From Isoetes taiwanensis (taxonomy: Eukaryota > Streptophyta > Lycopodiopsida > Isoetales > Isoetaceae): a DNA stretch of 64,000 bases. The DNA is taken from positions 1,704,338 through 1,768,337 of the forward strand of contig JAJEKV010000110.1 of the NCBI GenBank assembly GCA_021234155.1. The letters are read 5' to 3'. The notes below the pieces were generated by a model, which saw only the letters and a list, made by a program, of their open reading frames with translations, made no database searches and had not been told where the DNA came from. Shown one piece after another: positions 5,956-52,972 of this stretch. Each line of letters begins with the position of its first letter. Within the stretch, counting starts at the first letter, position 1. A program made the position numbers and the translations under genes.

Positions 5956-6054
5956 GTAAAAGAAAGGTTAAGGAAAAGGAAGGAATAAAGTTAGGCACAT
6001 TAACATTATTTAACTAGCACTAAAACAACCTTGCGTAAAAGAAACAGGATAGTC
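5956..6054 (+). repeat. 99-bp direct repeat, copy 2, abuts MULE left end
   Basis: Second copy of the 5660-5758 unit. Its last bases (CAGGATAGTC) coincide with the outer end of the MULE inverted repeat, so the repeat may be part of the insertion site or an extended subterminal region. Confidence 0.85.
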
Positions 6055-6480
6055 TTACCCTGGTTTCGGGGATCCCGGAGGTAAAAATACTGGCCTCTGG
6101 CATCCCTGCCATCTCTCGACGGAATCCGTTTCAGGCCCCCCCGTTTCACCATGCTGACACACGTGAGGGGGCCTGCAGAAATCTGGGCCGTCCGCCCACG
6201 CGACACATCCGGGCCGTCTGTGGTGTTCCCCGGCTCCGATATCACCAAAAAAACTACACGGCGATCCCGCCCTCCGGAATCACCAATATGTGATCCCGGC
6301 CTCCGGGATCACCATTCCCTGGTCGATAACGGTGTCGGAATATATCGTGGAGATCCCCCGGGATCAAAAACCGCCGTCGTGATTCCTTCCTCGGGATCAC
6401 CCCGCATTAGGGCCGATATCGGCGATCCGATATCGCGGCGTTCCCCGCCTCGGGATCACCACCGTGGGCGGTGGGACCTT
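6045..6480 (+). repeat. MULE left terminal inverted repeat
   Basis: Pairs with 23380-23757 on the opposite strand. It is studded with GATCCC/GGGATC words and has a higher GC content than the surroundings. The inner limit is approximate because the similarity fades through the GATCCCGG-rich part. Confidence 0.85.
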
Positions 6481-6949
6481 TTGCCCTCGGGTTCAATTTT
6501 TCGATGTGATTCCCTCCTGCAAAGGGATCACCACCGCCAAAGTATATCGGGCGTCCGTGGGCGATCATCCGAAACCCCTCGTTTGAGCGGCGGGAATCAA
6601 TACTTGGGGGATTAAAAGCATGCGCTATCCAATCATGGTGATATGTCTGGGAGGGCGGCCGGAACCTTTTCGTATGTCGGCGACTAGGAGACGCACACGT
6701 CGGCGGTGGAGATTAGGAGGAAGGGAATTCATTACGGCGATGGCTAAGTCGACATTTGTGCGCCAAGATCCTTTGCCCTTTCCGGAACGCTCGAGCGGAA
6801 AGGGCCATTTTGTTCGCCGAATCTCACAGTGTCGTCTTTTGCGCTTGACTCCGACGATTAGTTTAAGGTAATAAACAGAGCTAAGCGCCATCGGGAACTC
6901 GTTTTTTTTGTATTCAAAGCTTATTTTAAGCCTTTACGCTTTTTTAGAG

Positions 6950-7276
6950 ATGGAGGAGTCGATTAACCTCGAAATCAGCCTAAACACGTCTATTAACGAG
7001 AACTGGAATGGTGCATTAGAAGAGAACTCGGCCTGGAAGATGCCGGACTGCTTCAAAGACATCGCAGACCTTGGATCGACCAAGAGGTTCAATCCCCCAA
7101 AAAAAAAATTAAGGGGCGGAGGCCCGAGCCAAAGGGGTTTCGCCAAAGAAGGTTTCCCATGGGTTCGGAGGGTTCGGTCGGCGAGTCGGTGGGAGGAGGA
7201 GGCAAGGGAGAAAGAAAATGCAGAACTTGGTGCCACAAAGGGCAGCGGGGATGCAGAGGAGGGCTTGAAAATGTAG
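6950..7276 (+). CDS. Acidic/basic ORF at MULE 5' end, unknown
   Basis: An ORF of 108 codons from the ATG at 6950. It starts with an acidic stretch (MEESINLEISL...), has a lysine run near residue 50, and ends in an Arg/Glu-rich segment. It lies just inside the left inverted repeat and ahead of the 7359-8348 ORF on the same strand, and may be an upstream exon of the protease gene. No family is recognised. Confidence 0.35.
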   Translation: MEESINLEISLNTSINENWNGALEENSAWKMPDCFKDIADLGSTKRFNPPKKKLRGGGPSQRGFAKEGFPWVRRVRSASRWEEEAREKENAELGATKGSGDAEEGLKM

Positions 7277-7358
7277 AATGCTTCAATGTAAATCCAGCCA
7301 AGGAATTGGCAGGTTCCGACCCTTTGAAAGATTACATGTATGATCACATTCTTCGAAG

Positions 7359-8348
7359 ATGGCTTTGCCAAGTCGGTGGCTCACCAAAACCTATAGCAGG
7401 AAGGTTGAATTGGAGAATCACAAGTTCCGGGTGCATGCAATATATGAAAATTTCAGGGTTCCAGATGCACCAAGGGGCCGAATTCCCAAAAATAAAGCTG
7501 AGGTCAGGGTAAGAGACTATGGGAAGATCAGTTCTCTTGATCCAGATTTCAAATTCAGCCACAATCTCGCCAGGAAACTCCAAAGGGCAAGGGCAGCAGC
7601 TGAACGTGTGGCAGATGACCAAATCGAGCTCGGCCTTCTCGATGAAACGGGCCGGAGCGAGTTCATTAATCTGCAGGTGCGAAGAAAGGAGGCAGCAGAA
7701 CTTGAATTGCAGGAAGAGCGGATAAGGGAGATAAAAGAAAGGATCAGGGGGCGGTATGGCAATTTACTAGACAAGGAATTGTTTGTTGAACTGAGCTCTG
7801 AGCAGCGCCAATTGGATGATGACGATGTGAGCGAAGAGTTAGAGGCTGGAAGGACCCGTGATTTTACCTCCCCTCCTCCCAAAACTCCGAGTTCTATTAC
7901 CCCAGCCCGGCAGCGTGCCCCTAGGAAGCCGATGCAGTGTGGCCGTAAAAGGGATTTTGCTCAGATGGCCCCGAATCATATTATTCACCAAGAAGAGGAC
8001 AAGGAGCAAGAAAAGGAAGAAGAGCATGCATCTGAAAATGAATTGGCTCCCCTTCCCAGCAAGATCAAATTGTATTATTTGTATACGCTCGAACCCTTAT
8101 TCTTTGAGAATGTATTATCCTATGAGAGAGGGATCAGAAGGGATCTTTGGCAGTTCAAATTGTCTTTAAATTACCCAATTGTGGTCGAGAGTCCTCTCTT
8201 GAAGGTGGACAATCGGCAAATCGTAGAATTCCATATCTCAGAAGTCGAGGCCAAGGGTCAAATTCTCCACTATTGCGGGGTGCCCGGGTTCAGAGGATTC
8301 CGAGATCAATGCCATTTGCTTAGGGCGTATTTCTTTGTAAGTGTGTAG
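7359..8348 (+). CDS. Coiled-coil MULE protein, likely N-terminal part of the Ulp1 protease gene
   Basis: The longest ORF at the left of the MULE (329 codons from the ATG at 7359, open from about 7330). Residues 75-160 are rich in Glu, Arg, Leu and Lys in a pattern expected for a coiled coil. Residues 165-200 are Pro/Ser-rich, and an acidic Glu/Lys tract follows at about 208-230. A more globular C-terminal part (about 235-329) has no motif I know. A GTAAGT donor at 8337 suggests that the exon ends there and that the last few codons are intron. The Ulp1 catalytic exons follow within 200-500 bp on the same strand, so I infer a single protease gene with a long non-catalytic N-terminus, as Ulp1 proteins often have. 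Confidence 0.5.
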   Translation: MALPSRWLTKTYSRKVELENHKFRVHAIYENFRVPDAPRGRIPKNKAEVRVRDYGKISSLDPDFKFSHNLARKLQRARAAAERVADDQIELGLLDETGRSEFINLQVRRKEAAELELQEERIREIKERIRGRYGNLLDKELFVELSSEQRQLDDDDVSEELEAGRTRDFTSPPPKTPSSITPARQRAPRKPMQCGRKRDFAQMAPNHIIHQEEDKEQEKEEEHASENELAPLPSKIKLYYLYTLEPLFFENVLSYERGIRRDLWQFKLSLNYPIVVESPLLKVDNRQIVEFHISEVEAKGQILHYCGVPGFRGFRDQCHLLRAYFFVSV

Positions 8349-8520
8349 CTCATGTAGGATCTATTTTTCCACTTTGTAAGCTAAATTCGGGCCGTTTTGG
8401 GGTGCTTGCACACTCAATTCCGCCCATAAACGATGTCACCATGTCCTCCTCCACCCCGCCGCTTTTGGCTGTTCCTAAATGGTACCAAACCAGTTCGTGT
8501 GGTGCCTACTCTGGCGGTTT

Positions 8521-9306
8521 GTGAAGCTAATTCCGGGATCCCCCTTCGGTAAGGCTGTGTGGAAAATCCAGTATGCGCAGTTCTACTACATACCGGTTAA
8601 TGCTAGATAAATTGGGTTTGGGAAGTAAAATTTTTATTGCATTTCTAGTTCTGGTTTGAATTGATTGCAGCTTGTCCTTTGCAGTGGCCATTAGAGCCTG
8701 TTCATTTTGGTGGCTGATCCTTTGGCATGTCAGAAACTCAATAAGCCTTGCCCTTGCATATTGCATTTCGATTCCTTTGATCCCCTCCATGCTCCAATAC
8801 GCGGGTTCATCACTTTGTGAGTGTAACATTTGCTAACTATACATTCATAGCCTGTCTTCTAATGCCTTGACTTGCAGGTTTTTAAGTGATGTATTTAAGA
8901 GGTGGAGGCACGAGGCATCAACATTGCATAATGCACCAGTGATCTTGATGGAAGCTCCACAGCAGCACAACAACCAGGATTGTGGCATCTATGTTATTGG
9001 TTGTGTGCAGAAATTCATCAGAGAAATCTACAACAAGGAGACAGATGTGAGTTATCATTGTCTTATCTTTTGTCTTTTTTGGTTAGCAAATTTATGTATT
9101 GTTCATTTATAATCAACTGTCTTCAGATGGCGGATCAACCGGGACTAGTTTGCCAAAGAAGACGTGGACAATTTGAGGACAGGCTTCAAGGTGATGCTGC
9201 AGAAGCTAAGTGACTGCGTAAATGCAGGAAAATCCACCATCTACTTGCTCGAGGGTAGCAACCAATTCGCACGGCCCGTGACCCGGTTGATGCTGAATGG
9301 TCCATA
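8521..9306 (+). pseudogene. Ulp1-type cysteine protease, split and mutated
   Basis: SUMO-processing peptidase domain (C48 family) read across exons. A short piece near 8560-8598 encodes an ...YYIPVN-like strand. The catalytic His is at 8689-8691, directly followed by an in-frame TAG where Trp is expected (H-W-S-L). The catalytic Asp is at 8770-8772 (HFDSF). After a GT-AG intron (8817-8877) comes the Gln/Cys motif APQQHNNQDCG, with Cys at 8981-8983. A second intron (9047-9126) leads to a C-terminal exon whose conserved frame has another TAG at 9146-9148, again where Trp is likely, and needs a 1-base shift. Ulp1 enzymes cleave SUMO precursors and conjugates. Some plant MULEs carry such genes, their role in transposition unclear. 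The triad residues are present, but the stops make this copy inactive unless they are read through. Confidence 0.75.
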
Positions 9307-9489
9307 ACAGAAAAAAAAGGTTGTTCCTTGTTCAACATGTAAATTGTCTGCTATGTTTGTAAATATGACAGTTTTTTAATGGTTAATTGAAGTGGGAACT
9401 TGCTTTCCTTTTTTCTTGTCTGGGTTCACTCTTGACTTGTCAATCTGCATCCCATGGTACTCATTGAAAATCACTGAAACCATTCAAGC

Positions 9490-10660
9490 ACTTCATAACA
9501 GATGAACTGGATTTGAACACCTCTGGGATCCCGAAACTTGAATAGCTCTGGGATCCCGAAATTTGAACACCTCCGGGATCCCCAGAGAGCCAAATAATAA
9601 AACAACCATTAAAAAAGACAAACCACCAAAAAAGACAAACCATTATTATGGTGATCCCGGAGGACGGGATCACCACAATAAGATTCTGTCCTCCGGGATC
9701 ACCAGACAGCCAAAAAAAAAAGAATAGCATTACTTAGCCATTATTAAAAAATCCCATCCACAAGTTAGTGATCCCGGAAGTGATCCCAGAGGACGGCATC
9801 AACTATGTGGTGATCCCGGAGGCCGGGATCACCACGAGTAGATTCCGTCCTCCGGGATCACCAGACAGCCCGAAAAAAAAAAATAGAATATTCAATACGG
9901 CAATTACTTAGCCATTTTTTAAAAAATCCCGTCCGCCAGTTGGTGATCCCGGAGGACGGGATCAACTGTTTGGTGATCCCGGAGGCCGGGATCACCACAA
10001 GTAGATTCCGTCCTCCGGGATCACCAGACAGCAAAAAAAAAGAATAGAATTACTTAGCCATTAAAAAAGGCTTTAAAAATTCCCGTCGCCCAATTTGCCA
10101 GCTTGGTGGGGCAGGGATCATCTATGTGGTGATCCCTCACCACATAGATGATCCCGCCCCTCCGGGATCACCGTAAAAACAAAAAAAGAATAGCATTACT
10201 CGGCCATTAAAAAAGGCTTTAAAAAATCTCGTCTGCAGTTGGTGATCCCGGAGGACGTGATCAACTGTGTGGTGATCCCGGAGGCCGGGATCACTACAAG
10301 TAGATTCCGTCCTCCGGGATCACCGGACAGCAAAAAAAAAAAGAATAGCATTACTTAGCCATTAAAAAAGGCTTTAAAAAATCCCGTCCGCCAGTTGGTG
10401 ATCCCGGAGGACGGGATCAACTATGTGGTGATCCCGCCCTCCGGGATCACCACAAAAAGATTCTGTCCTCCAGGATCACCATACAGCCAGAAAAAAAAGA
10501 ATAGCATTACTTAGCCATTAAAAAAAGCTTTAAAAAATCCCGTCCGCCAGTTGGTGATCCCGGAGGACGGGATCAACTGTGTGGTGATCCTGGGGGCCGG
10601 GATCACCACAAGGAGATTCCGTCCTCCGGGATCCCCAGACCGCCAAAAAAATAATAGAAT
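9490..10660 (+). repeat. Array of palindromic GATCCCGG units inside the MULE
   Basis: About six to seven tandem units with a period of 145-170 bp. The landmark TTACTTAGCCATT recurs near 9731, 9903, 10050, 10195, 10351, 10507 and 10660. Each unit carries an A-run, then GGTGATCCCGG-AGG-ACGGGATCAAC, then GGTGATCCCGG-AGG-CCGGGATCACC, which is a perfect 11-bp stem with a 3-base loop, and then a third inverted block. One unit (about 10110-10150) has a longer inverted repeat centred on the ATCTATGTGGTGATCCC word. The same words occur in the element's terminal repeats and in the small relative at 52324-52774. Confidence 0.9.
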
Positions 10661-10747
10661 TACCTAGCCATTGTAAAAGTCGACTTTACCACTTTACCCT
10701 TAGAAATTGAAATCATGGCTTAACCGTACAACGGTTGATTCATGAGT

Positions 10748-10757
10748 CTATATATAC
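10748..10757 (+). promoter_or_regulatory. TATA box of internal MULE gene
   Basis: CTATATATAC lies 96 bp upstream of the ATG at 10853 and directly after the GATCCCGG array. The spacing would put the transcription start near 10780 and give a 5' leader of about 75 bases. Confidence 0.55.
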
Positions 10758-10852
10758 CCTTGCCTTAGTTGTTCTTGGTAGAAAGTTAGTTGGTTTCAGT
10801 TGAGTTCAGTAGCAGTCGAGTTCATTTGCTTATTGTTCAAGCCAAGTGACAG

Positions 10853-11275
10853 ATGGTGAGGACCCGACAACAGCTTATTGAGAGCAGTGCCATCAATGCC
10901 CACAGTCTTGAGGATATTCTCGTCCACTTGAATGAAATTCAAGAGGATGTGGGGCTAGATCTCGCCCAACCTAACAGCATCAAAACGTTCAAAAGTAAGC
11001 ATGTTGTTGTCTTCCTTCATATTCATGTTCTACTTTCATATTAATCTTTTCATGATCCCCTCATGGTTCATGCAGAGACCGTGGAGAATGGGGAATTCGT
11101 AGAGATCCCTAGGCCTCTCGACTCTGACATTCGTAGGCCAAGCCATAGGGCATTGCTGGCTGAATTGAAGAGGTGTATTATCCAGGGCAAGGCTTTGAAG
11201 TATTTGCTAGCTACAGACGTTGTCTGGGAAGGCAACACCCTAAAAGCCCGCCGAGGAAATGTATCTGACTGAGGT
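10853..11275 (+). CDS. Spliced small MULE protein, unknown
   Basis: Two exons join in frame: 10853-10994 and 11076-11275. The intron (10995-11075) starts GTAAGC, ends ATGCAG, and splits a codon at phase 1. The product would be about 114 residues. Its N-terminal half (MVRTRQQLIESS...) looks helical. Its C-terminal half carries a basic stretch (RRPSHRALLAELKRC) and ends soon after KARRGNVSD. No domain is recognised. A further coherent reading frame continues at about 11306-11467, so the stop may be a mutation or an alternative exon end. The LINE nested at 11614 follows directly and may have cut the gene's 3' part. Confidence 0.5.
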
Positions 11276-11613
11276 GCGAAAAGAAGGTTCGATCGGGAAG
11301 TCCTAGACTCGGGGTCTGATCCATACCTATCGCGATATCTTCTTGATCACATGGTGTGGAGACTACCTATGGTGTGCCGATGTAAGCGTTGAGGACATCG
11401 GGCAGAAGGCATGGCAACAGTGCTTGATGTTGATTCAGAATGATTCCGAATTAGAATGTCAGTTTTAAGCCATTGTAACTTATGATCCATTTGACTTGAT
11501 ATATTAGTGCTCGTGCCAGCTATGCCATCAATCTTCTCAAGTCTAAAGTCGAGCTGCCTCATGAGAGAATCAGTTGCAACTAAAATGTTAGGATCTCTTG
11601 TCTATCTTTATTC

Positions 11614-14600
11614 ATGAAGATTATGACATGGAATCTCAGAGGCATTAAAGGGCCTGTCAAGAGAAGAAGGGCAATTTCTCAAATAAAGGAATACCAAGCT
11701 GATATTATTCTTTTACAAGAATTAAGGCTCCCTAATTTTGAATGTTTCAATCTTGCAAATTGGATTGGCCCTGACTTCTCTTCCCTCTGGATTGATGCCA
11801 CCTTGACCTCTGGAGGCCTTATTATGATATGGAGAAATATTTCTCAAAGTCTGATCTATAACAGTCCCTGCAAATGTTGGCAGGCTGTTATCTTTAACTT
11901 TAAAGGTTCTCAATTTGGAATTCTGAATATTTATGCATCAACTATCTCAAAAGAGAGAGAAAAATTATGGCTGGATATTAGATCTTGGCTTCTGAATCAT
12001 AATTCAATTTCTTGGATTCTAGCTGGAGATTTTAACAACACCCCTTCATGGGATCTTAAGCTTGGCAAAAATCTCAACATGTCAAACACAGAAAAAATAA
12101 ATTGGGACAATCTCCTAGACACATTTCTTTTCACTCATATTCCCTCTTCTACTGCAAGATTCACTTGGACCAATAAACAGAAGGGTAACTCTAGAGTTTG
12201 TTGTGCCTTGGATATGTTTTACATAAGCAACTCTAGCCATGAATTTTGGGATAATAGTTTTGTTTCAAGTGATGAGAGAACTTCTGTTTCAGACCATCAA
12301 CCTCAATTCCTTGAAACTAAACATCTTCTTTCCATTAAGAGATCGGGTAACATTCCTTATAAATTTAATTGTTCTCTACTCCAAAATGCAAACTTTTGTA
12401 GAGAATTTAAGATCTTTTATGCCAATCTTCCCAAAATTAGGGCAACCAACTCTATGAGAGATTTCTATGCTAAGATCAAATCTTCTAAATCATGGATTAA
12501 ACAATGGTCTAGGAATGATTGGGAGTCAAAAAAAGCTGAGAGAAATAATCTGTTGATACAAATGCAATCTATTAGAACCAAGCTCCAGGCTGAACCTTTA
12601 AATCTTGATCTTCATTTGCAAGAATCCAAGTTAGAACAGTCAATCAAAAGCATTGAAGAATATGAAGTCAAAGGGGCAGCAATCAGATCAAAAATTAAAT
12701 TTTCTTCCTCCATGGACAGTAGCAACTCTAAATTCTTCTTTAGAATTGCAAGAAATAGGCTGCTCAAGAGTCAGCTTACCACAATCAAGAATGACCTTGA
12801 TATTGCCTTCTCCCAAAGATATTGCTGATTTCTTCCATTCCAAATATTCTAATATCTTTGCAGCCAAATCTGATATCCCCTGGACTGACACTCCTGCCTC
12901 TGAATGCATTGATTTGCTAAATTCATTGCCTGACAATATTGTTGATCCCTTATCTCCCAATTTTGAATTGCCTCCTTCTGAGGAGGAGATTAAGTCCACT
13001 CTCTTAAGTCTTGCCAGTGGTAAGAGTCCTGGACCAGACGGTTTCCCTCCAGAATTCTATTCTCATTTTTGGGAGGTCTTAAAATCTGATATTGTCTCAA
13101 TGGTTCATGGATTTTGGCTCAATAATCACCTTCATCCTGCTATCTCGGCTGGATTAATCTCTCTTATTCCAAAGGTTAATAATCCTACTCTGTTTAGTGA
13201 TTGGAGACCTATCTCCCTCACCAACTCATCCTATAAGATCTGTGCAAAAATTCTGGCCAATAGGATAAAAGGGCATTTGCAAAAGTATATCAATTTGCAT
13301 CAGTCAGCTTTCCTCCCAAATAGGTTTATTTTAGACAATTATATTGCAGCTATGGAGGGCATGCACTGGGCCAGAGTAACAAATTAGAACTGTGTTCTGT
13401 TAAAGCTAGACTTCTCGAAAGCTTTTGATACTGTTAGGTGGGATTTTTTGACACTCTCTTTGAACAAAATTGGTATCCCAACTAAAATCATTGAGTTCAT
13501 CATGGGCCTCAACTCTAGATCCCAATCTGCTTTCCTTATTAATGGTTCTCCTGGTAATTTCTTCAGTTTGCATAAAGGTGTGAGACAAGGATGTCCTTTA
13601 GCTCCCTAACTTTTCATTATTGTGGCTGAGCAGCTTACCAAAATCATTTTGCACCATCAGAACAGTGGGAATCTTAAAGGCCTTAATATGCCTGGCAATG
13701 ACAGCCATCTCATTATGTTACAATATGCTGATGATTCTTTTAGCTTTCTTCATAATGATGTCAAAAACATTGAGTTTTTCATCAAGATTTTGAATGGATT
13801 TAGTGCTGCTTCTGGTATTTATCTGAACATGGCCAAATGTGTTTTAATTGGGGTAAATGATCGACCTGACATCTTAGGCATTAGGTGTATTCCTGTAAAT
13901 CAAACATCCTCTCTTTTGGGAATGCCTCTGGCCTTAGATATCTCCATTAAAAATATGTGGTCTCCAATTGTCTCAAAGATCAGAAAGAAGCTAAGCAATT
14001 ATGGTAGCTGTCTCTCCATTGCAGGTAGAACAATTATTGCCTCCTCTGTGCTAGCTAGTTCTCATATTTATTTTTCATCTGCTTTGCTAGCTCCCAAATG
14101 CATCTACCAGCAAATTGAAAAGATTGTCCGAAACTTCATCTGGGGCAAACATCACCTGGTCAATTGGAAATATGTAACTCAAAGCAAAAGAGAGGGGGGT
14201 CTTGGATGTAAAAACCTTTTATTGCAGGGATATGCCTTGGCAGGGAAATATATCTGGAAGTCTTTGCTGAGTCAAAGTAATCCAGCCAGCAAGTTTATCT
14301 ATTATTGGCTCAGTAAAAGCACAATTGTTGGTCATCCTTCCATTTCTCATTATCTTCCATTTTCTACTTTTAATTTGCTCAAACCAGCTAGCAATTCTTC
14401 TCCTCTCATGAGGAACCTTATTAATTCCTGGAATAAAGTCCACAAAGCTTTTTCTCACATTGGTATTAATCAGTTTCATAATGGTACCAGCATCTTTTAG
14501 AATCCATCTCTTGCCAAAGCTGACATGGTCCCTTTGGCTTTAAAACATCCAAAAATCTACAAAAAATGGACTTTCTTTGGATTTAATAAGCTTGAAGATA

Positions 14601-15499
14601 TTTGGTTTAACAGTACATGGATGACTTGGACTAAATTCAAATCACTTATTAATGGAACCTCTTCTGATAAGGTTTTATTTAAACATGTTGTTAGCAAAGT
14701 TTCCAACCTCAATCTTCATAATGATGTGTCAGCTAGAATTGATTGGCAGCATAAAGATAAGAACATTTATAAAGTTGCTAATATTTACAAGTCCTTGGCC
14801 AACATCAACCAAGCATCTAAAGCTTGCCTTTATTGGAATTTCTCTGTTGACACTGGAAATGCCCTTTTTAGAAATGTGTGGAATTCTCATTGTGCTCCAA
14901 AAATATCTTACTTTATTTGGTTGCTTGCTAACAAGAGCATTCCAAATATGGAGACTTTGTCTAGACATCATCAACCATCTAATGATCCAAATAATTCTGC
15001 TATAAGTTCTTTATGCCCCTTGCAGTGTAATGGCATTGAGGATATTGAGCATATTTTTAATTGTCCTAAGATCTCAAGCTTTTGGAATTGGTTTCAGTAG
15101 GTTTTCAACATCAGAAAGCAAGGGAGTATTGTTAATTTTATTATGTCTGATAACAAGTTTAAAAATTCAATCTCCTTTATTGCTTTATGGAATGTTTGGA
15201 AACATAGAAATAGATGCCTGCATGGTGGTCATAATCCTTCTCCTATTTGGATCAAATGGCAAGTTATTTTTGACATTGAGCTCACTGCCACTGCACATAA
15301 ATACAGAAATTCTGGACTACAAATAAACAACAGTTGGGTGAAAGTATGCTGGTGGGTATCAAATAAACGCGGTGCTGAACCCAGCACCAGCACCCTTCAT
15401 ACTATTTTTTCCACCCTTCACCAATTGAAGTCTAACCTATGCTATGCCCGAGGGCGTACCCGTTTCAATCATAACCTGCTTACCGCCCACCGTAACTAA
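11614..15499 (+). mobile_element. L1-type LINE nested in the MULE (EN-RT), decayed
   Basis: An apurinic endonuclease domain starts at the first codons (WNLRG, LLQE, AGDFNN, SDHQP motifs). A reverse transcriptase follows, with SPGPDGF, the LDFSKAFDTV motif carrying the first catalytic Asp, GCPLAP, and the YADD box near 13725. A zf-RVT tail comes last (NSHCAPKISYFIW... CPLQCNGIEDIEHIFNC, about 14880-15070). That order is typical of plant L1 LINEs. No gag-like ORF1 is present upstream, so the copy is 5'-truncated or lost it. There is one frameshift near 12800, then a single frame to 15499 interrupted only by stops at 13385, 13607, 14498 and 15098. No poly(A) tail is visible. Confidence 0.85.
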
Positions 15500-15639
15500 T
15501 GACTGTGACCCGAAGGGATTTTTGAATTTGTAATTTGCAACCGTGCTCCCCACCTTTTGCTACTCCGGCCAAATAGCCCGCGGAGAAGAAGCTCGAGAAT
15601 TTCCACATTCACTCTAGTATTCCAAAACTCGAACGCACT

Positions 15640-16548
15640 ATGGTGAAGATGGTTGTTAATCCGCCGGCTCAGCCAGCAATTCCAATGGATGCCATGCGCA
15701 GGGTAAGCAAAATGCAGTGCCAATTTTGATGGCTTACGATGCCCTGTTAATTTGTTTTCCTTACTTTCTTTCAGCCCAGAAGGAACGTGCCCCTAAGACC
15801 AGACCTGGCTGATTGCCAAACTGAGGAGGACTTACATGCTTATGCGGGTCTATCAAACGAGGGTGTGCATCCCTCTCAATTTCGAACGGATGTGATATCT
15901 GCAGCAGAGTATAATGAGGTTTGGGACACCAATGGTGTCATTCCCAACAAGACATCCATCGATAAAGTAAGGCCAGAGCATGAAGAAGCTCTAATTGAAC
16001 TGTTGAGCAAGATATACCCAGAAGGGTTGAAGAATAGAGAAGTAGGGAAGACGGTTTCCTTTTTATTTGCATTCAACAACTGCCAGAGGGCCAAGCAGGA
16101 TCCCGAAAATTTCAAGGTTAATTGGGCAGCAGTGGCAGCAAAAAGCAGAGCCTATTCGAGCAAGGTCAAGAGTGAACCCAGCACCAGCGGCCCGGTGGAA
16201 CACAAAGCAGAGCCCAACAAATCACGGCCAGACAACAAGACACACGAAAGCATAGCGTAAAGGCCAGCCTCAAAGCAGTAGCTGCCAGTAAAATTAGAAG
16301 GGAGGTTGTCATTCGTGAGTATTGCGAATGTGTCCAAAGCATTCTCGACTTATGGGGAAAAACATTTCCGTCTGGAAAGCATGATCCAAGATATGCGGGA
16401 AGCCCTAAAATGCAGCAGAGTGGCCTAGTGTCAAAGAAGGAACAGCCGCACAATCTCGTGCAAAGGGCACCTTCTTCTACCGCAGAGGGGAAGTTGAAGA
16501 CCATAAAGGATAATATTGCACGCCTTCAAGCAATCGCCGGATCCTAAT
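15640..16548 (+). pseudogene. Spliced MULE-internal gene, unknown, one frameshift
   Basis: Exon 1 (15640-15702) encodes 21 residues starting MVKMVVNPPAQP. A GT-AG intron (15703-15774) follows, then a phase-0 exon reading to a stop at 16258. The exon 2 product has a charged region with KVRPEHEEALIELLSKIYPEG and a Lys/Ser/Pro-rich tail. About 15 bases before that stop another frame takes over and reads on without a stop to 16546 (VVIREYCECVQSILDLWG..., KTIKDNIARLQAIAGS), so a 1-base indel probably broke a protein of about 280 residues. The family is unknown. The gene lies on the same strand as the other MULE genes, directly after the nested LINE, and might originally have been continuous with the 10853 gene. 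Confidence 0.5.
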
Positions 16549-18180
16549 GCAGTGTCTCGGCCGAGATTCATTCTTTGGAGAGGGAGAAAGATATGGCGTA
16601 ATATATCAAGTCCCTACTTGAAATGGGGGTGGGCCAATAGATCAAACCCGGTAGAAAAAGGTGGCTGCACTAATGCCGAGATTGCCAACAACGAGTCCCT
16701 CCTTGCAAAAGCCCAAAGAAAGACTTACGAATGTCACCGGCCGAGGGAGATGACCAAGAGAAATGATCACGGTGGTCAAAGATCACTCCAATACCATTCC
16801 GATTGCCAATTGGAGATGAGGAGAGATGCTCCACCCGTGGTCTTGCATTCCGGGATGATTACACCCTCACCTGCGGATGAAATGTGGACATCATTATCAC
16901 GTTAGTCGCATCGGTTTGCTCATGGAAAAAGGATCTTTGCCTCGAAAAGTGCGAGACCATTCCTACAGGGTTAGTGCGGGGAAATAGGTGTTTTAATACA
17001 AGTTAAAGCGAGGAAGTGTTGCATTTGGAACATCTCACAAAAACCGAGAAGAAGATAATTGATGTTGATGAGCATGTAGCCACAACTCCTGATAGCAGCA
17101 GGAAAAGGAAACAGGTCAACACACCAAAAAGTAAAAGGACCCCAGGATCAGCCAAGCACAAGTCCACAAGGGTTCACACTCCACAGCCAAGACATGGGAA
17201 AAAAGGTACATGCTTTTTCTGTGCTCGATTTTGAATTGGCGGCATTAGAAGGTGTCTTTGTAGACATTGGACAACAAACTACCGGCGATCTTGGCCTTTT
17301 CAAAGACACCACAACACCGGCAAAGACAGATCTTTGGAGACACCAAAGCATGCAGAATCCAAGGGAGATTCAAGTAGTACTGATGGTGCCAACAATTATA
17401 TTATAGTTCCAAATTCTGCATTTTGCCTCTACAAAGGCCTCCTCTAACACTATTCTTTGCGAGGGGAAGGAAAACGATGGCGAAGATGTCAACAATCGAT
17501 TCAACCCGGTCGTTAAGCGGTGAGCAAAGTTGACACGGTCAAGGGCCGGGAAGGTTGTGGAAGAAGAAAGTGAGGGTGAGTGTAAAAAATGATCTTGATG
17601 AGGACGTCCCTATAGAAGTATCATTTGAAAAAAAAAAAAACAAGGCTAATGTAATTTTGCCTTATGTATTTCAAAGAGCAGTGCAAACCTTGATTTTGCA
17701 AGACAATCCTAAACCATCAGCCAAAAGGTTTTTGTTCAAACAATTAATATATTTGATCCCTGTTTTATTCCACCTTTAATGTGCAAATTTTGGTTTGGAT
17801 TATTCATTCAACTTAGGCTTCTGTAAAAACTTGTTAAAAAGAAGGCAGACCAATGGTTATACTTAGTGAATCGATGAAGAAGACAATACTGAGAAAGAAG
17901 TGCCAAAGACAAACTCTAACATACAAAAGGTGCCTGTTATCCTGTTACATTTCAGAATGTGTATTCTCTACAAATTTCAGTTGTTAATTGGAGCTCATCC
18001 TTGCATGCAGGAGAACAAGATAGGTCGTGAATGAAGAAACTGAGGACAAAGGCCTGCAAGGGTTACTGATAGTCAGGAAACACCCATACATTGGGGGCAG
18101 GGAGATACTAATAAGGATGTATCTGACTATGGCTATCAGCACTCTCCATCATCGGTAGCAAAGATAAAGCGAGTCCAAAG
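16549..18180 (+). pseudogene. Decayed coding remnants in the MULE
   Basis: Short frames with protein-like composition but many stops. A charged helical piece lies near 16560-16640, a Lys/Arg/Thr-rich basic stretch (KRKQVNTPKSKRTPGSAKH) at 17100-17160, and a segment at 17600-17750 (DEDVPIEVSF, ANVILPYVFQRA). These may be exons of the protein ending in the phosphatase-like domain at 18230-19044, or a separate gene. I cannot join them confidently. Confidence 0.35.
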
Positions 18181-18229
18181 AAGTCGCAAAGAATGTCCAA
18201 AGACCTCCCAATAGCACTTCCCAGCAGAG

Positions 18230-19044
18230 TCCAGCACACATCGCAGCACAGACAAGCACGATGCAGCACACATCGACAATGGTTGAAAACGTCGAGGGAT
18301 GGACACCCAGACGGAAGTGCATGGTGCTTGACATAAATGGTGTCTTGCAACGCATTACACAACAGAGAGGAGAATGAGCGGAAAATCTTGCCTCCACCAC
18401 AAACGAAGCATGTTGTAAAAGAAACTGCAAGTAAGTCCTCATTTGCAGACCAGGGTATCATGAGTTTGTGGACTGGGCACTGCAGAGGTTTGATATTGTG
18501 ATTTGGAGTGCTTCTCTACTTCGGAATACAAAAGATATGGTGGCTGGATGCATTGTTCCCTGATTTGCAGACCAGATTCTTGAAGGTATATGGTCAAGAG
18601 CATTGCTATGCATGCGAGCATCCAACCAGCAAAGAAAAGCAACTTTTTTTCAAGGAGTTGAAGGTTGTACTTGAGGATTTTCCTCAATATCATGGTATGA
18701 TTTTTCTGGTTGATGACAGCCTACACAAAGGGTTTCTAAATCCTGCACACACAACCGTTCATGTTATGCCTTTCAAGGGGCAAGAAGAGGACAACTTTTT
18801 GCAGAAGTTTATGTGTCCAGCTTTGGAATACTTGTCTTCTCATACAGTACAGGAAACGATCTCACAAATTGACATCTCTGATGCATGGTTGGACAAGGAG
18901 ACAGTTGCAGTGCTGGATTACTGCCTCAACAACTATCTTGTCTCGGCCTACTATATCCTCAATGCTCCATTAGAAGTACAAAGGCAGCTGCTGGGCACCC
19001 TTCCTGGCGAGGAGCATGACTCTGAAGACTTCGATGGCTCATGA
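18230..19044 (+). pseudogene. HAD-family FCP1/NLI-interacting-factor-like phosphatase, broken
   Basis: Three blocks show the order of HAD motifs seen in plant NLI-interacting-factor-like phosphatases. Block 1 is MVLDINGVL with the nucleophile Asp codon at 18330-18332. Block 2 is RPGYHEFVDWALQRFDIVIWSAS (motif II Ser in WSAS) at about 18447-18520. Block 3 is a Lys-bearing FFKELKVVLEDF followed by FLVDDS with the acidic pair at 18712-18717, then FLNPAHT. Block 3 lies in the ORF ending at 19044. Blocks 1 and 2 share a frame with stops between them; block 3 is in another frame. A GTAAGT donor and a TTTGCAG acceptor are only 18 bases apart, as if an intron had collapsed. FCP1-like enzymes remove phosphate from proteins such as the RNA polymerase II tail. 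Here it sits inside a transposon, so it is probably a captured host gene. Confidence 0.6.
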
Positions 19045-19347
19045 AGTAACCATTGTACACTACTTTTTTGTAATATATATGTATGATTACTTTATCTTAT
19101 CTTGAGTATTGAGTGATCTTGAGTGATGTCTCTAACCTTGAATGTACAATTTTCTGTAATATATATCAAGCTTACTCTCCAATACTACAAGCATTGTTTC
19201 CAATACTAAAATACTCCAATACAGCAGTCCAATACTACAAACATTGTCTCACAAGCATTGTCTCCAATACAATGATCAAAATTTGAGACAAGTACATAAG
19301 TAACTACAGACCTGTTACAATGATAAAACAACTAGGTCAAAGCATAT

Positions 19348-19995
19348 TCAACCTTCATATGGCAGACTGTCAAGGATCATCTGGTGAGTAGCCTGTTCAA
19401 GGGAAAATCTGTTGGTGCCAGGAATCTGATTCATCTCAAACTTGATAGCTGATACGTGATGACTGTACTGGAAAGTCAGGCCTTTGTCTTCAAGTAGCTC
19501 CCAACCACCATCTGGCTGGACAACATAGTACAAACCAGCCAACACATGTTCATCCACATTGAAGGTCTGACCCCAGCAATCCTTGACAATTCTGTCAAGG
19601 ATATGCCTCGGCTTAACACATTTGACCATATAGAAATCTGTATTCTCCTTATTTCCCTCCTCGGCTACAACAGCAAAGTTATCACCTTCCTCTACGTTTC
19701 CACTAAGCCATTCTCCATCACCTTCAAAAAATGCCTCATCGATTTCGTCTTCAGTACCTTCACCAGTAGACTTATATGACTTTAGTGTAACATATTTCCA
19801 ATTCTTCAACCTGTGCTTGTTCACACAAGATGACCAGTTTCCTTTCAAACAGTTACCACAGAAACAACTTAAACCTCTATGAGCCACCCTTGTGCTTGAT
19901 TTGGCCAAGTATGTCCGGATGCTGTGTATTTGCTTGGTCCCTTCCACCTCGGCGCGATCCCAAATGGTCTGTCCTATCAACATCATCCTTTCCAA
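19348..19995 (-). CDS. Minus-strand 215-aa MULE ORF, unknown
   Basis: An uninterrupted frame of 215 codons, with further open sequence upstream. A cysteine cluster near residues 44-56 (CFCGNC...SSC) could bind zinc. An acidic stretch (about 75-105) is followed by hydrophobic/aromatic segments (FAVVAEEGN, YMVKCVKPRHILD, LAGLYYVVQ, WELLEDKGLTFQY). I do not recognise a family. Its conservation as an open frame, while neighbours on the other strand have decayed, suggests it mattered to the element. It lies downstream of the transposase on the same strand and might be the 3' part of that transcription unit. Confidence 0.55.
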   Translation of the reverse strand: MERMMLIGQTIWDRAEVEGTKQIHSIRTYLAKSSTRVAHRGLSCFCGNCLKGNWSSCVNKHRLKNWKYVTLKSYKSTGEGTEDEIDEAFFEGDGEWLSGNVEEGDNFAVVAEEGNKENTDFYMVKCVKPRHILDRIVKDCWGQTFNVDEHVLAGLYYVVQPDGGWELLEDKGLTFQYSHHVSAIKFEMNQIPGTNRFSLEQATHQMILDSLPYEG

Positions 19996-20462
19996 TTACC
20001 CGTAAGTACATGCAAGGAGACAACAAGTATTGCAGCTCACAGACAAAGATAATACAAAGACTACTCATCACGTTCTGGCCAGTTCACGACAAAGACTTAA
20101 AGCGGATGAAAGCACTACTCAAAGACATTACTGGCTAGCTTTACAAAGACTACTCAACGAATCACAAGCAGATGAAAGCATAATACCTTTTGATGTCCCC
20201 GTTGTTGGTACCTTCATTCCAACGAGTTGCGAATTCACAGGCATCAGCAGCACCCCTAAAGCTCACCCCATCTGTCAGAGATATTATATATTTTTTAACC
20301 TGTCTATACATTGTGTATTTAGAACTTAAACTATTGACAATTTGCTACTACTGGATTGAGTTTTTCTAAGCTCAATTCCACATTTTGATGATCACTATCT
20401 ATGATCACATCTTTATGTTTCTTTATTTTCCATAATTAATGATTAAAAAGCTTCACTCCTTC

Positions 20463-20482
20463 AAAAAAAAAAAAAAAAAAAA
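20463..20482 (+). repeat. Poly(A) tract of a retro-insertion
   Basis: Twenty A residues follow CTTCACTCCTTC, the kind of end seen on LINE transcripts (compare CTTTGTCCTTC plus A-run at 57890-57914). It falls at the 3' end of the transposase reading frame and appears to have cut off its tail. The 5' limit of the insertion, somewhere in 20060-20460, is not clear. That stretch also contains a short direct repeat (CAAAGACTACTCA at about 20055 and 20140). Confidence 0.6.
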
Positions 20483-20483
20483 T

Positions 20484-22997
20484 GTTAGGATCTTTTCGAG
20501 CCTTAGACATCACTCTAGCAATTACCGCCTCCAAGGAGGCCTGAGTCTTCTTCAAGTCCACTTGACTGCTTGTTTGCAAGGGAGACTCTTCCCCTAGGCG
20601 TACTACCTCAAGCACCTCGGATCCCTGGTCTCCACAACTCTCTTGCACGGCTTCGTATGGCTTCAGGTGGTCCATGCCCCCACCTATTGTCCCATATTGG
20701 GAACCCAACACCTGTAAGAGATCTTGATCCCTGTAATTGCCAAGCATTTGCATAACTTTTACCTGATGCTTACATAGATTACCCTTGGCTCCCCAAGGGC
20801 AATCACAACATGCCCAATTCTTGTGTGCTCCAGCAACAAAATACGGGCCCTGTCCAAGAGTGCGCTCGTTTTGCACTTCAGCCTCGCCCTCCTCGAAGTT
20901 GGTAAATGTGACTTGTTCGTCGGCAATATTCCGAGCGCCTCTAATTGCGCACTCTACTATTTGAGGTGTTTACTACAAATCCATGTTCCTTCATAGACCT
21001 AGAACATAGCTATATATCAATCATTTGCAAGGTAAATTAGACTAGGTAGTGGTATATAAATGTTACCTCATGTAAGCCATGTGTGTCTCCACATTGTTAG
21101 TGAGAATGTAGAGCAACCAGTCAATTCTCCTGCCTCGAAGTGCACGTTTACATATGCCTAGGCGCAACTTAAGGGCAGCATGCCATGCCTCTATGGCAGC
21201 ATTGGTCTTCTCTTGATTGGAGTGCATGTACATTCTTGTAGCCAATACCCATTCACAGATGTTCTTAGTCCACTCCTTACTCATGTAGGCCGACAATTTA
21301 GGGTATTGAGGATACTTCCTCACCAACTCTTCCAACCTCTTGATAGCCTCTTTCCTAATAGCTTCCCTGTACTCATGACCATACTCATTGTCCCCTACAG
21401 GACCCTCTATCTTGTACATTATATTCCCTAGCTCCTTGAACATTTCATTTCTATGGACCTTACTCCTTACATTTTTACTTAGCCACTTAATCCAGGCTCT
21501 TCTCACATGTGCATATTTGCACAGGCACGTTTGAGAAAACCTACAAGTGCACAATGTCAGTCCATAGTGTTAGAAAGTATGCAAGAAAGTATAAGAAGGG
21601 GGAAGGGTGACAAATTGCCAGACATTACCTACTTTTTTTACGGCCTTGATTTCAGCATCAGCATCGTCAGTAATGATGCAAGAAGGGTACCAATCCGGAT
21701 CATCCAGGCATAGTGAATCCTTTAGTGCTTTCAACCACTTAGTTATAGCCCTAGTTTTTTGAGAATTGGTTATGACATATGCCAATGGCAAGGCATTGCA
21801 ATGGTCATCGAAGGCAATGAGTGTAAAAAGATAGTACCTGCATAATAGAAACCAATAGCTCTCATTGGATCTAGAATTGAAATGCTATAGCCATTTTAAA
21901 TGGACTATGGAAAAGATCTAGAATGGAAATGAACCCAAAGTAGTGTACCTCTTGTCATTAGTTTTGAAGGTTGCATCCATGTAAATGGCCCTATTCTTTC
22001 CAAACTTCAGCATTGCCTCTCTTTGGATTGGAGTCATCACTCCCAATTGGAACGTGTCACCATGTTCATACAAGAACACGGACTCTAGATGTTGTTGCAC
22101 CCACATGTAGCTAGTGGGAAGGTCTTCATGTAGCTTCCAAGTGTTTCTAACAACACTCTTCTCAATGTTGTAAACATCCCGGATCTTCAGCATGTCATCC
22201 CTACACATACTATCCTTGCCATGCACATCTAGTTTAAATCTCCACCTCTCCTCGTGCATGTTCATAACACTTCGTGGGGTGTGCCAATGCACGAGCTTTT
22301 CTCTAACCCATTCCCTCAATTCCTGAGAGATCCACGGTGCTAGCTTGAATCTGATACCTTTCTCTACGTCAACAAATTTACCATGGGAAGCCTCACCTTG
22401 GAGATTTCTATGCTCAAACCCATAATAAGTAACTTGCGAGCATTTTGGGAGAAGGTAGAGTTGCCTAATGGTAAAATGGCATTGGCAGCCCCTACGCACA
22501 CTCTCACCCCTCTCAACTCTTTTCCTGCGTGTGCAGGGTCGACGTGGTCCATCAGCAACCACGTGAGTGTTCAAAGTCTTGTCCTGGGAACCATATGTGC
22601 ACCAATACCTATTTTGAGTGTTCAAAATTAGTGCATGAAAGTAGTGCATGTACATCTAAGAATTAAATATACTTCTGCTACAATGTTTTCTACTACAGAA
22701 ACAACAGCAGTAAACTAGAGGATAGGGTTTTAAAAATACATACCTCTTCATAGTCAAATAAGAATCTCTTGTTGGCCTCTTTAGCACCCTCTCGGGATTG
22801 GAACTCCTTAAGTAGAAGCTGCACGGTGCCACACAATTTCTTTGCTCTCCAAGAATGAAGTCTTCAACCCGGTTTGTTGGGAAGTAGCAGGTCCAGACAA
22901 GCATTTCTCCACCTCCCTGTACAGAAGGAACTTGGTGCTCTTCGGGAAAGCAGTGTAGGTTGTTGTGGTCGAAAATGCCATTAGGAGGTGACTCCAC
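20484..22997 (-). CDS. MULE transposase (FAR1-like DDE, SWIM zinc finger)
   Basis: Multi-exon gene read downwards. Exon 1 runs about 22997-22744 and ends at an AGAG|GTATGT donor. Exon 2 runs about 22617-21960 and holds a FAR1-like basic/Cys region, then the start of the DDE core IYMDATFKTN (Asp at 21975-21977). Exon 3 (about 21845-21633) holds IITDDADAEIK (second Asp near 21666). Exon 4 (about 21550-21062) has a helical insert and TNAAIEAWH (Glu near 21189-21191). Exon 5 (about 20963-20484) carries the SWIM finger CDC-x8-CKH (20807-20766). This is the full domain order of a Mutator-type transposase, which cuts and joins the element ends. I saw no internal stop in the exons. The exon 3/4 junction is one base out of phase near a run of seven A, and the C-terminus runs into the poly(A) insertion. 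Confidence 0.85.
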
Positions 22998-23379
22998 ATG
23001 TATTTCAGCACGCAGCTGGGAATGGCGAGAAAGGGCTAAGATATACGTTTCTTACCTCCTAAAAATAATCTTAAGCAGATAAATACCTGTGCTATCATCT
23101 CCTCCAGCCCCCAAACGTCCATAGCTGCCAGGCCGCTTCAAACATCCGTCTGTGCATATGCAGCAGCGCAGAGAAATTCTGGAAGACAAATGTGGGATCC
23201 CGGAGGGTGGTTTCTGACATCCCAGGTGTCCAGATCTCATTGGTTGGTCCGTGCATGGGCTGGCATATTCAAAACCGGTCGCACGATCAGTCCACGGCCG
23301 CTGGCCACCGTCGATTTTCATGCATAAAGTACGTGGGGATCCCAGAGGCGGGGATCGCCCCCGCTCTTGGCTAGCAAGG

Positions 23380-23757
23380 TCCCACGGCCCACGGTGGTGA
23401 TCCCGGAGGCGGGCACGACCGGCGGTTTCGGTGATCCCAGAGGCCGGGATCTCCACGGCTGATTCCAGCACCGTTATCGGCCAGGGAATGGTGATCCCGG
23501 AGACCGGGATCACATATTGGTGATTCCGGAGGGCGGGATCGCCGTGTAGTTTTTTTGGTGATACCGGAGCCGGGGAACACCACGGACGGCCCAGATGTGT
23601 CGCGTGGGCGGACGGCCCAGATTTCTGCAGGCCCCCTCACGTGTGTCAGTACGGTTAAACGGGGGGGCCTGAAATGGATTCCGTCGAGAGAGGGCGGGGA
23701 TCCGGAGGCCAGTATTTTTACCTCCGGGATCCCCGAAACCAGGGTAAGACTATCCTG
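23380..23757 (-). repeat. MULE right terminal inverted repeat
   Basis: Inverse of 6045-6480, ending at 23757. Translated in the same relative frame, both ends give almost the same peptide over about 70 residues, a direct sign of high identity rather than of coding. GATCCC words continue inward to about 23190. Confidence 0.85.
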
Positions 23758-23887
23758 AGCCTGATAGAAATAAAGATTAAGTCCAAAAAATTCCCATCGG
23801 GCCATCGGACGGGAACAGACCAAAAGGGCACAAGCCCCAACAGAACTTGGGGGCTATGTCCTATATAAAATCTTAACAATAGCAATA

Positions 23888-51709: not shown

Positions 51710-52323
51710 GAAGTGCTCAACTGGTTTTCCTCCCACCCTTTCACAATAGCCTGCACTAATTACTAGCGTCTATAGCTTATTAGCCATGTACTTAGAATGC
51801 ATCGATTTATCCAACCCCTGATTATCGGGATTCTCCAGCTAAATCGGCCTATACCACCTGGATCGGCGATGCATCCTGCTACCAGGATCCTCATCGTAAA
51901 GGTTCTTCAGATTCTGCTGCCATCGATTCGATGAATAAAAAAAGTTCTCTCTCTTAGTTTTGGCCCACCCAACCGAAGCCAGCCAAGTGGACCCGTGAGT
52001 TCAGTGGTTCTTGCTTTCTTACTAACCTTAACGTTCTAATTAAAGTTCTAGATGACATACATTAGCCATGAATGAAAAAAGCATCCCCTATTGCACTTTC
52101 ATAGTGTAGGTACTCGGGATTTTCTAATTTTGTTACAAAAGCTACTATTTAGTGCATGTTATTAAGCTGAAATGCATGCAATACTGCCATGCATAATCCT
52201 AATTTGTAATTGAGTCGGTATAGGGAAATGTGTTCTTGCACCCCCGTGCCCAAATGCAAAGGAGTCGGGAAAGAGAAATGTCTGCGGCGCAACATGCTTT
52301 AAGGTTGTTAGAGATTATTTTTC
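51710..52323. other. Non-coding stretch, no gene seen
   Basis: No coding or RNA feature is supported. It ends at the target duplication of the small MULE. Confidence 0.5.
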
Positions 52324-52774
52324 GGCGTAGGATAGTCTTACCCTGGATTGGGGATCAGGAGGTGTGATCGGGAGGGCGGATCGGGAGGACGTGTGATCGG
52401 GAGGAGGGGATCCCATTGCTAATCAGCAAGCAGTTAAAAGGGTGATGCTTGCAGTTTAGGGCCATTTTTTGGCCGAATTTTTGCTTGCTGATAGCAGTGG
52501 CGCTACCCTCTCTTCCTCCTTGGCATCAAACTACAGCTCTTCTCAAGCCCATTCCGACCAACCTCGCACAAACCCCAGCCGATTCCGTGGAGGATCGGCC
52601 AAGAAAAATGCATAAGAAAACTTGGCTGATTTTCGCTATAAGGGGCCTTTTTTTTCCGCAGTTACTGTGCAGTAAGGGGATCCCGCCCTCCGGGATTACA
52701 CGCCCTCTGGGGATCCCGTCCTCCGGGATCACACCTCCGGGATCCCCCAATCCAGGGTAAGACTATCCTACGCC
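52324..52774. mobile_element. Small non-autonomous MULE with 9-bp target duplication
   Basis: A 451-bp unit with inverted ends GGCGTAGGATAGTCTTACC..., which match at 23 consecutive positions. It is flanked by the perfect duplication TTATTTTTC at 52315-52323 and 52775-52783. A 9-bp duplication is the hallmark of Mutator-like transposition. The ends share GGATAGTCTTACCCTGG with the giant MULE at 6045-23757, and the inside is full of GATCCCGTCCTCCGGGATC-like words. It has no transposase of its own, so it was presumably moved by a relative of the giant element. It lies about 200 bp beyond the 3' end of the glycine-rich protein gene. Confidence 0.9.
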
Positions 52775-52972
52775 TTATTTTTCTTCTAATTTTTACGCCA
52801 TGGCATTTGGCAGCATCCATAGGAAAGAAATATTATAAAAAGGTAGATCATCATAGAAAGATAGATTTATATATGAGTGATATTAATGAAATATTACAGA
52901 GAGTAGGCCTCGTATATTAGACAACAAGTTTTTCCACATTGTTGTAATCATATGTATATGCTATAAAGTGTT

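What the first reader, a model, noticed from the sequence alone, without database searches (positions are those of the whole stretch)
6045..23757. A 17.7-kb Ulp1-bearing MULE with several extra genes
Inverted ends of about 400 bp bracket a transposase, a Ulp1 protease, a phosphatase-like gene, at least three unidentified ORFs and a long palindrome array. MULEs carrying Ulp1 are known in plants, but this size and gene set are unusual and could represent an undescribed subfamily. The boundaries and domains are seen in the sequence; that all the ORFs belong to one element is inference.
Basis: partly seen in the sequence, partly recalled or inferred. Interest (0 to 1): 0.85.

Follow-up and report, generated by a model that had tools for sequence, protein, structure and literature searches.

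The report
Ulp1-carrying MULE with nested retrotransposon
The apparent giant jumping gene is an ordinary-sized one (about 9 kb, encoding its own transposase and a SUMO-protease-like protein) into which a retrotransposon carrying yet another transposon has landed, so the extra genes are hitch-hikers, while the core family, with short-motif arrays between its genes, looks like a lycophyte parallel to anti-silencing transposons known from Arabidopsis.

Summary
The inverted ends are real (6045-6480 / 23376-23761, 93-98% complementary over the outer 310 bp) and belong to a Mutator-like element whose siblings carry 9-bp target duplications. The 17.7-kb size and most "extra genes" are not part of it. 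A LINE (11597-20478, duplication AAAATGTTAGGATCT, poly-A) sits inside the last transposase exon, and the LINE holds a truncated transposon "X" (15336-20272, relatives with 4-bp duplications) that carries the phosphatase. A 9.7-kb sibling shows the empty site; none of seven other TIR-paired copies examined has the insert.

The core family (about 9-10 kb) has convergent transposase and Ulp1-protease genes with motif arrays between them. Both genes show purifying selection among up to 15 copies. The motif GATCCCGGAGG occurs 433 times in 58.8 kb of element non-coding DNA and once in 58.5 kb of coding DNA. This resembles Arabidopsis VANC/KIU anti-silencing elements, but with long TIRs and a C2H2-like finger, in a genome whose assembly totals match the lycophyte Isoetes taiwanensis. 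The anti-silencing role is inference. The window copy is dead.

The parts
6045..6480 (+). left terminal inverted repeat (the terminal GGCT seen in siblings is missing here)
6036..6044 (.). possible decayed 9-bp target duplication, left (TAAAAGAAA; 7 of 9 match the right one)
   Evidence: read; siblings have 9 of 9
6950..8330 (+). Ulp1 gene, N-terminal and middle part, with C2H2-finger region (about 7365-7437; damaged in this copy) and frameshifts/stops
   Evidence: zf-C2H2 in a sibling copy (0.0027, below cut-off); ligands
8677..9304 (+). Ulp1 catalytic exons (H, D, then PQQHNNQDCG); stop codon directly after the H in this copy
9513..10679 (.). non-coding tandem/palindrome array with motif GATCCCGGAGG in both orientations
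10853..11247 (+). possible third gene, two exons (10853-10996; 11078-11247), matched in part of the copies only
11494..11598 (-). 3' end of the last transposase exon, cut off by the LINE
11582..11596 (.). LINE target duplication, left copy AAAATGTTAGGATCT
11597..20478 (+). nested LINE insertion, including element X; absent from siblings examined
11614..14500 (+). LINE endonuclease and reverse transcriptase (broken)
   Evidence: PF03372 3.9e-12; PF00078 0.0078, below cut-off
15336..20272 (.). element X nested in the LINE, right end lost (full-length relatives 7.7 kb, TIR GGGTGAAAGTATGCTGGTGGGTA, 4-bp TSD)
18508..19044 (+). NIF/FCP1-like phosphatase gene of element X
19348..19995 (-). C-terminal part of the putative transposase gene of element X
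   Evidence: assignment is inference, no Pfam hit above cut-off
20479..20493 (.). LINE target duplication, right copy, joined to the poly-A run 20463-20482
20481..23045 (-). MULE transposase pieces (N-term, DDE with MDATFKTND and ITDDADAEIKAV, SWIM); one stop in the aligned DDE stretch
23376..23761 (-). right terminal inverted repeat, ending CTATCCTGAGCC
23762..23770 (.). possible target duplication, right (TGATAGAAA)

Best explanation
A dead copy of a multicopy Mutator-like (MULE) family of about 9-10 kb. The family moves by cut-and-paste: a MULE/SWIM transposase acts on long TIRs and makes 9-bp duplications. The element also carries a convergently oriented Ulp1-protease gene that selection has kept, and arrays of a short palindromic motif in its non-coding DNA. 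In this copy a LINE has inserted into the last transposase exon, and the LINE carries a truncated second transposon X that supplies the phosphatase and other extra ORFs. Shown: ends, nesting, empty site, gene order, signs of selection, motif placement. From established knowledge: the cut-and-paste mechanism. Inferred (about 0.35): the Ulp1/C2H2 protein recognises the motif arrays and counteracts silencing of the family, as VANC proteins do for VANDALs.
For: TIRs. Target duplication 9 of 9 in 6 of 8 copies examined (C1032, C1037, C112, C1076, C1045, C1030); the other two are the window (7 of 9) and C1099, whose left TIR end is truncated. Colinear 9.7-kb sibling with empty LINE site. Seven of 7 siblings lack 11.6-20.48 kb. 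Transposase SWIM exon split by the LINE. X is a separate repeat with its own TIR and a 4-bp TSD in 11 of 11 copies read. Convergent Ulp1/transposase in 15 of 15 pairs found, from 15 of 40 listed Ulp1 hits, window included. Selection: median dN/dS Ulp1 0.49, Ulp1 catalytic 0.25, transposase 0.37, against 0.75-1.02 in shifted frames. Motif: 433 in 58.8 kb element non-coding, 1 in 58.5 kb coding, 7 in 58.5 kb unmatched nested/flank DNA; 2,424 exact 14-mers in the genome against 4 for the reversed control.
Against: The window copy has no perfect 9-bp duplication. The MULE domain hit is below the curated cut-off. For the anti-silencing part: no methylation, binding or expression data; no homology to VANC was found (no DUF1985 among Pfam hits); the motif is also in the TIRs, where transposase sites are expected; the C2H2 ligands are intact in only 8 of 14 copies covered, although many copies are decayed. 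An earlier, cruder dN/dS (tblastn-based) gave higher medians (Ulp1 0.61, catalytic 0.60, transposase 0.54). Pairs of copies are not independent, and codons with stops were skipped in the true frame but not in the shifted frames.
Confidence: 0.9

Rival explanations
1. A true 17.7-kb composite MULE that captured the phosphatase and other genes and moves them.
For: All lie between the same pair of TIRs.
Against: LINE with own TSD and poly-A, empty site in the C1032 sibling, 7 of 7 siblings examined without it, X repeated elsewhere in the genome with its own TIR/TSD and differing flanks.
Confidence: 0.02
2. The palindromic motif arrays are transposase-binding sites (repeated TIR modules), unrelated to the Ulp1 protein; Ulp1 has a different role, for example removing SUMO from transposase or host factors.
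For: The motif is dense in both TIRs and in small relatives (19 in the 1.4-kb C1045 copy; three sites with at most one mismatch in the 451-bp MITE at 52324-52774). MULEs with several TIR modules are reported (PMC3310237, passages).
Against: Most motifs in the window lie in the internal array between the two genes (20 of 31 within the element), far from the ends; array period and copy number differ between copies.
Confidence: 0.35
3. The arrays act as RNA hairpins between the two convergent genes, as transcription terminators or as a source of small RNAs that silence the family.
For: The array lies between the convergent 3' ends and folds far better than shuffles (231 nt, z -12.4).
Against: The motif is also in TIR and subterminal DNA, there mostly in one orientation per end (rows).
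Confidence: 0.2
4. Ulp1 is a decaying captured gene fragment without function in the element.
For: Stops and frameshifts in the window copy and in many siblings.
Against: Low dN/dS in the catalytic exons (0.25 against 0.75 and 1.02 in shifted frames); H and D kept in 14 of 14, Cys in 15 of 15 copies covered (rows).
Confidence: 0.08

Closest known systems
KAONASHI (KI-MULE / KIU) elements, Arabidopsis
   Same: MULE with Ulp1 gene in reverse orientation to the transposase; Ulp1 gene one of three genes (PMC2528002 and PMC13317346, passages)
   Different: KI-MULEs are non-TIR; this family has TIRs of 400-550 bp, a C2H2-like finger, no VANC-type domain hit, and sits in a genome that appears to be a lycophyte's
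VANDAL elements with VANC anti-silencing proteins
   Same: Short motif in non-coding DNA forming tandem repeats that vary between copies, plus an accessory gene (PMC5735166, PMC10398659, passages)
   Different: Different motif (palindromic pairs rather than same-orientation arrays), TIRs present, no detected protein homology, no methylation data
TIR-MULEs with ULP1 domains of melon (as told in PMC2528002, passage; original paper not seen)
   Same: TIRs plus Ulp1
   Different: Host lineage; motif arrays not mentioned in the passage seen
Sola2 transposons (for element X)
   Same: 4-bp target duplications, short TIRs, passenger genes reported (PMC3627910, passages)
   Different: Transposase homology not shown; the passenger in the passages seen is Fanzor1, not a phosphatase; the TSDs there are AT-rich, those of X are mixed

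Membership tests
Mutator-like element (MULE) | long terminal inverted repeats | tested here: met
   about 550 bp in C1032
Mutator-like element (MULE) | 8-10-bp target duplication | tested here: met
   9 of 9 bases in 6 of 8 copies; window copy 7 of 9, C1099 left end truncated
Mutator-like element (MULE) | MULE transposase with DDE-type motifs and SWIM finger | tested here: met
   PF10551 1.7e-5 (25.6 bits, cut-off 27.6), PF04434 above cut-off; D of MDATFKTND in 13 of 13 and of ITDDADAEIKAV in 12 of 13 copies covered there (rows); the E was not located
KAONASHI / KIU | Ulp1 domain opposite in orientation to the transposase | tested here: met
   15 of 15 pairs found
KAONASHI / KIU | non-TIR ends | tested here: not met
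VANDAL / VANC | motif tandem repeats in non-coding DNA | tested here: met
VANDAL / VANC | VANC protein homology | tested here: not met
   no DUF1985 or related Pfam hit in the Ulp1-gene ORFs scanned (window and C1076); that VANC proteins bear DUF1985 is recalled
VANDAL / VANC | sequence-specific loss of DNA methylation | not testable with these tools
   no methylation data
LINE (11597-20478) | endonuclease and RT, poly-A tail, target duplication | tested here: met
   RT hit below cut-off
Sola2 (element X) | 4-bp target duplication | tested here: met
   11 of 11 copies, read with the TIR starting at GGGTG
Sola2 (element X) | Sola2 transposase homology | tested here: inconclusive
   no Pfam hit; model failed, pLDDT 32

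The most novel reading that the evidence does not exclude
A lycophyte TIR-MULE family encodes its own sequence-specific anti-silencing system: a C2H2-Ulp1 protein that binds GATCCCGGAGG palindrome arrays throughout the element's non-coding DNA and lifts silencing, evolved independently of, or long before, the angiosperm VANC/KIU system.
Probability: 0.25. Interest if true: 0.78.

Novelty: new variant of a known kind. Interest (0 to 1): 0.42.

Why it matters
It corrects a tempting over-reading (a giant gene-capturing MULE) to a three-layer nest. It also leaves a family worth testing: Ulp1 has repeatedly joined plant transposons, and a recent review places its capture in non-TIR MULEs at the monocot-eudicot separation (PMC13317346, passage). 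A Ulp1-MULE with motif arrays in a lycophyte would mean an older or independent association and gives a second system in which to ask what Ulp1 does for a transposon.

Tried and rejected
Gene capture of the phosphatase by the MULE: rejected, since it belongs to X. LINE 3' transduction of 15.5-20.3 kb: rejected, since X has its own TIR and 4-bp TSD elsewhere. Structure prediction of the X transposase: pLDDT 32, so no fold search was made. PDB sequence search of the Ulp1 exon: best hit yeast Ulp1 at E 0.097, weak. Third gene: exon 1 matched in 8 of 15 copies and exon 2 in 7 of 15, partial matches and the window itself included; dN/dS in the reading frame 0.59 and 0.48 against 0.71-1.17 in other frames, on 17-20 pairs; inconclusive. 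The tblastn-based dN/dS was replaced by a nucleotide-aligned one with shifted-frame controls; both are reported. In one search the marked index for the catalytic D pointed to the neighbouring F, and the marked Q was one residue off; statements on D and Q here are read from the printed rows. Phage search with a transposase exon: no match. Not done: trees of Ulp1 against host or angiosperm Ulp1 genes (no plant protein collection at hand); the 54-kb TIR pair on C1044 and the unpaired TIR hits were not fetched; 4 of the 15 Ulp1/transposase pairs (C962, C1053, C778, C1088) were not fetched. Statements on what is not in print rest, over open-licence PMC papers only.
Full report
Observation. The inverted arms are real: 6045-6100/23702-23757 at 98% and 6102-6357/23446-23701 at 93%, with weaker continuation to 6480/23376. 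In sibling copies the terminus is GGCTCAGGATAGTCTTACCCTGG (small variations), flanked by 9-bp duplications. They agree in 9 of 9 bases in 6 of 8 copies read (C1032 TATTTTTGA, C1037 AAAAACTAA, C112 ATCACTTAT, C1076 AAAAACTCC, C1045 CATCTATAC, C1030 ATCCACGTG). C1099's left TIR is truncated (its hit starts at base 68 of the query). The window copy lacks GGCT on the left and its flanks agree in 7 of 9 bases.

Genome. The window lies in a 1,658,258,908-base assembly of 1110 contigs. The Isoetes taiwanensis paper reports 1658.30 Mb in 204 scaffolds plus 909 contigs (PMC8566536, passages). That the host is this lycophyte is an inference from these totals.

Nesting. Blast of the window region against seven other copies, taken because TIR hits paired up (C1032, C1037, C112, C1076, C1099, C1045, C1030; a 54-kb pair on C1044 was not fetched), lists no match to about 11.6-20.48 kb in any of the seven (E 1e-10, pieces of 150 bp or more listed). 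C1032 (9.7 kb) is colinear with 6046-11494 plus 20479-23762 and shows the unbroken target TTGCAACTAAAATGTTAGGATCTTTTTGAGCC. The window has AAAATGTTAGGATCT at 11582-11596, then the insert, then a poly-A run and the same word again at 20479-20493. The insert begins with an endonuclease/RT of LINE type (PF03372 3.9e-12; RVT_1 0.0078, below cut-off), and its last 190 bp recur elsewhere, in the one copy read followed by poly-A (L029). Translated comparison shows that the insertion cut the last transposase exon: residues 175-209 of the SWIM piece lie at 11598-11494, residues 19-179 at 20963-20481. The eight further copies (6.6-8.6 kb each, with both genes) have between 11 and 981 bp that match neither the coding pieces nor the C1032 element, so they cannot hold the 8.9-kb insert either.

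Element X. Inside the LINE, 15336-20272 is a separate repeat: 18 other places cover 4.0 kb or more of the searched 4.5 kb at 87-92% (36 candidates scored of 745). Three copies followed to both ends are 7.7-7.8 kb long and end in GGGTGAAAGTATGCTGGTGGGTA-type repeats on both sides. Target duplications of 4 bp can be read in 11 of 11 copies; in one of them (C1020) the terminal base is changed, and some are low-complexity (TTTT in C941). X carries the NIF/FCP1-like phosphatase (PF03031 8.2e-18 in C1053) and, on the other strand, a putative transposase (IDFAENY...SDGCSSQFK...HGKGEHDG) without Pfam hit. The 4-bp duplication fits Sola2 (PMC3627910, passages), but homology is not shown. In the window X has lost its right end, and a comparison LINE copy has about 0.7 kb that the window lacks there.

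Other long copies. The 15-21-kb lengths of C1037, C112, C1076 and C1099 are explained by gaps of 5.6-16.6 kb relative to the window, each at a different point.

Core family. Searches scored 40 of 559 candidates for a transposase stretch (others 92-97% identical to the window) and 40 of 231 for Ulp1 (83-95%). Fifteen of the 40 Ulp1 hits, window included, have a listed transposase hit within 20 kb, and all 15 are convergent. Peptidase_C48, zf-C2H2 (weak), SWIM and MULE domains were found in sibling ORFs. The window's Ulp1 has several frameshifts/stops, one directly after the active-site H.

Selection. Fifteen copies were used: the window, six of the seven TIR-paired copies (the 1.4-kb C1045 left out), and eight of the pairs, so not a random sample; C112 lacks most of both genes. 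Nucleotide-aligned pairwise dN/dS has medians: Ulp1 0.49 (91 pairs), Ulp1 catalytic 0.25 (87), transposase 0.37 (101). Shifted frames give 0.88/0.88, 0.75/1.02 and 0.89/0.84. Third codon positions are the most divergent in both genes. Pairs are not independent, and codons with stops were skipped in the true frame only. The cruder one search gave 0.61, 0.60 and 0.54. Active-site H and D are present in 14 of 14 and Cys in 15 of 15 copies covered; Gln six residues before Cys in 14 of 15 (rows; the H-D-Q-C assignment is recalled). The C2H2 ligands are intact in 8 of 14.

Motif arrays. GATCCCGGAGG (up to one mismatch) was chosen by eye from the array, so its excess over shuffles in the MULE part of the window (31 against 0.08) is partly by construction. 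Its placement is not: over the 15 copies, 433 in 58.8 kb of element non-coding DNA, 1 in 58.5 kb of coding DNA, 7 in 58.5 kb of unmatched nested or flanking DNA. The 14-mer GGTGATCCCGGAGG occurs 2,424 times in the genome against 4 for the reversed pattern, and the places listed are clustered, several clusters (C30, C57, C68, C29) near Ulp1 or transposase hits. Array period and copy number differ among copies. The array folds as strong hairpins.

Mechanism. Cut-and-paste by the MULE transposase on the TIRs is established biology of the superfamily. That selection has kept Ulp1 is shown here within the limits above. Its role is not. Placement of a short motif in changing non-coding tandem arrays, next to an accessory gene, is what VANC-type anti-silencing looks like (PMC5735166, PMC10398659, passages), and KIU, the Ulp1-bearing version, is said to act so too (PMC13317346, passage). 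I give this 0.35 as explanation of the Ulp1/array part; transposase binding and hairpin RNA are the rivals.

Verdict. Ordinary nested insertion explains the title claim. What remains is a variant of Ulp1-bearing MULEs in what appears to be a lycophyte. The listings showed no paper on such elements in lycophytes, with the limit that most subscription papers are not held.

Noticed in passing
window 52324-52774: A 451-bp MITE-like element with 30-bp perfect TIRs (GGCGTAGGATAGTCTTACCCTGG...) close to those of the MULE family and a perfect 9-bp duplication TTATTTTTC (52315-52323 / 52775-52783).
   Followed up: partly
G000 C1053:6094716-6102419 (L016, L025, L038): Element X: a 7.7-kb transposon family with 23-bp TIRs and 4-bp target duplications that carries a NIF/FCP1-like phosphatase gene opposite its putative transposase; the phosphatase motif reads LDVNGVL (that the usual second Asp is replaced by Asn is recalled).
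   Followed up: partly
L012 (G000 C1045:6463302-6464721): A 1.4-kb internal-deletion derivative of the MULE with both TIRs, 9-bp duplication and 19 motif sites.
   Followed up: yes
window 53005-53468: Repetitive 12/24/36-bp array that may be a glycine-rich (or similar low-complexity) protein gene.
   Followed up: no
G000 C112:460211-481668: The MULE copy there has a gap of about 16.6 kb relative to the window, with 9 bases of overlap (22929-22937) at its edges, as if a further MULE-like element had inserted into the MULE.
   Followed up: no
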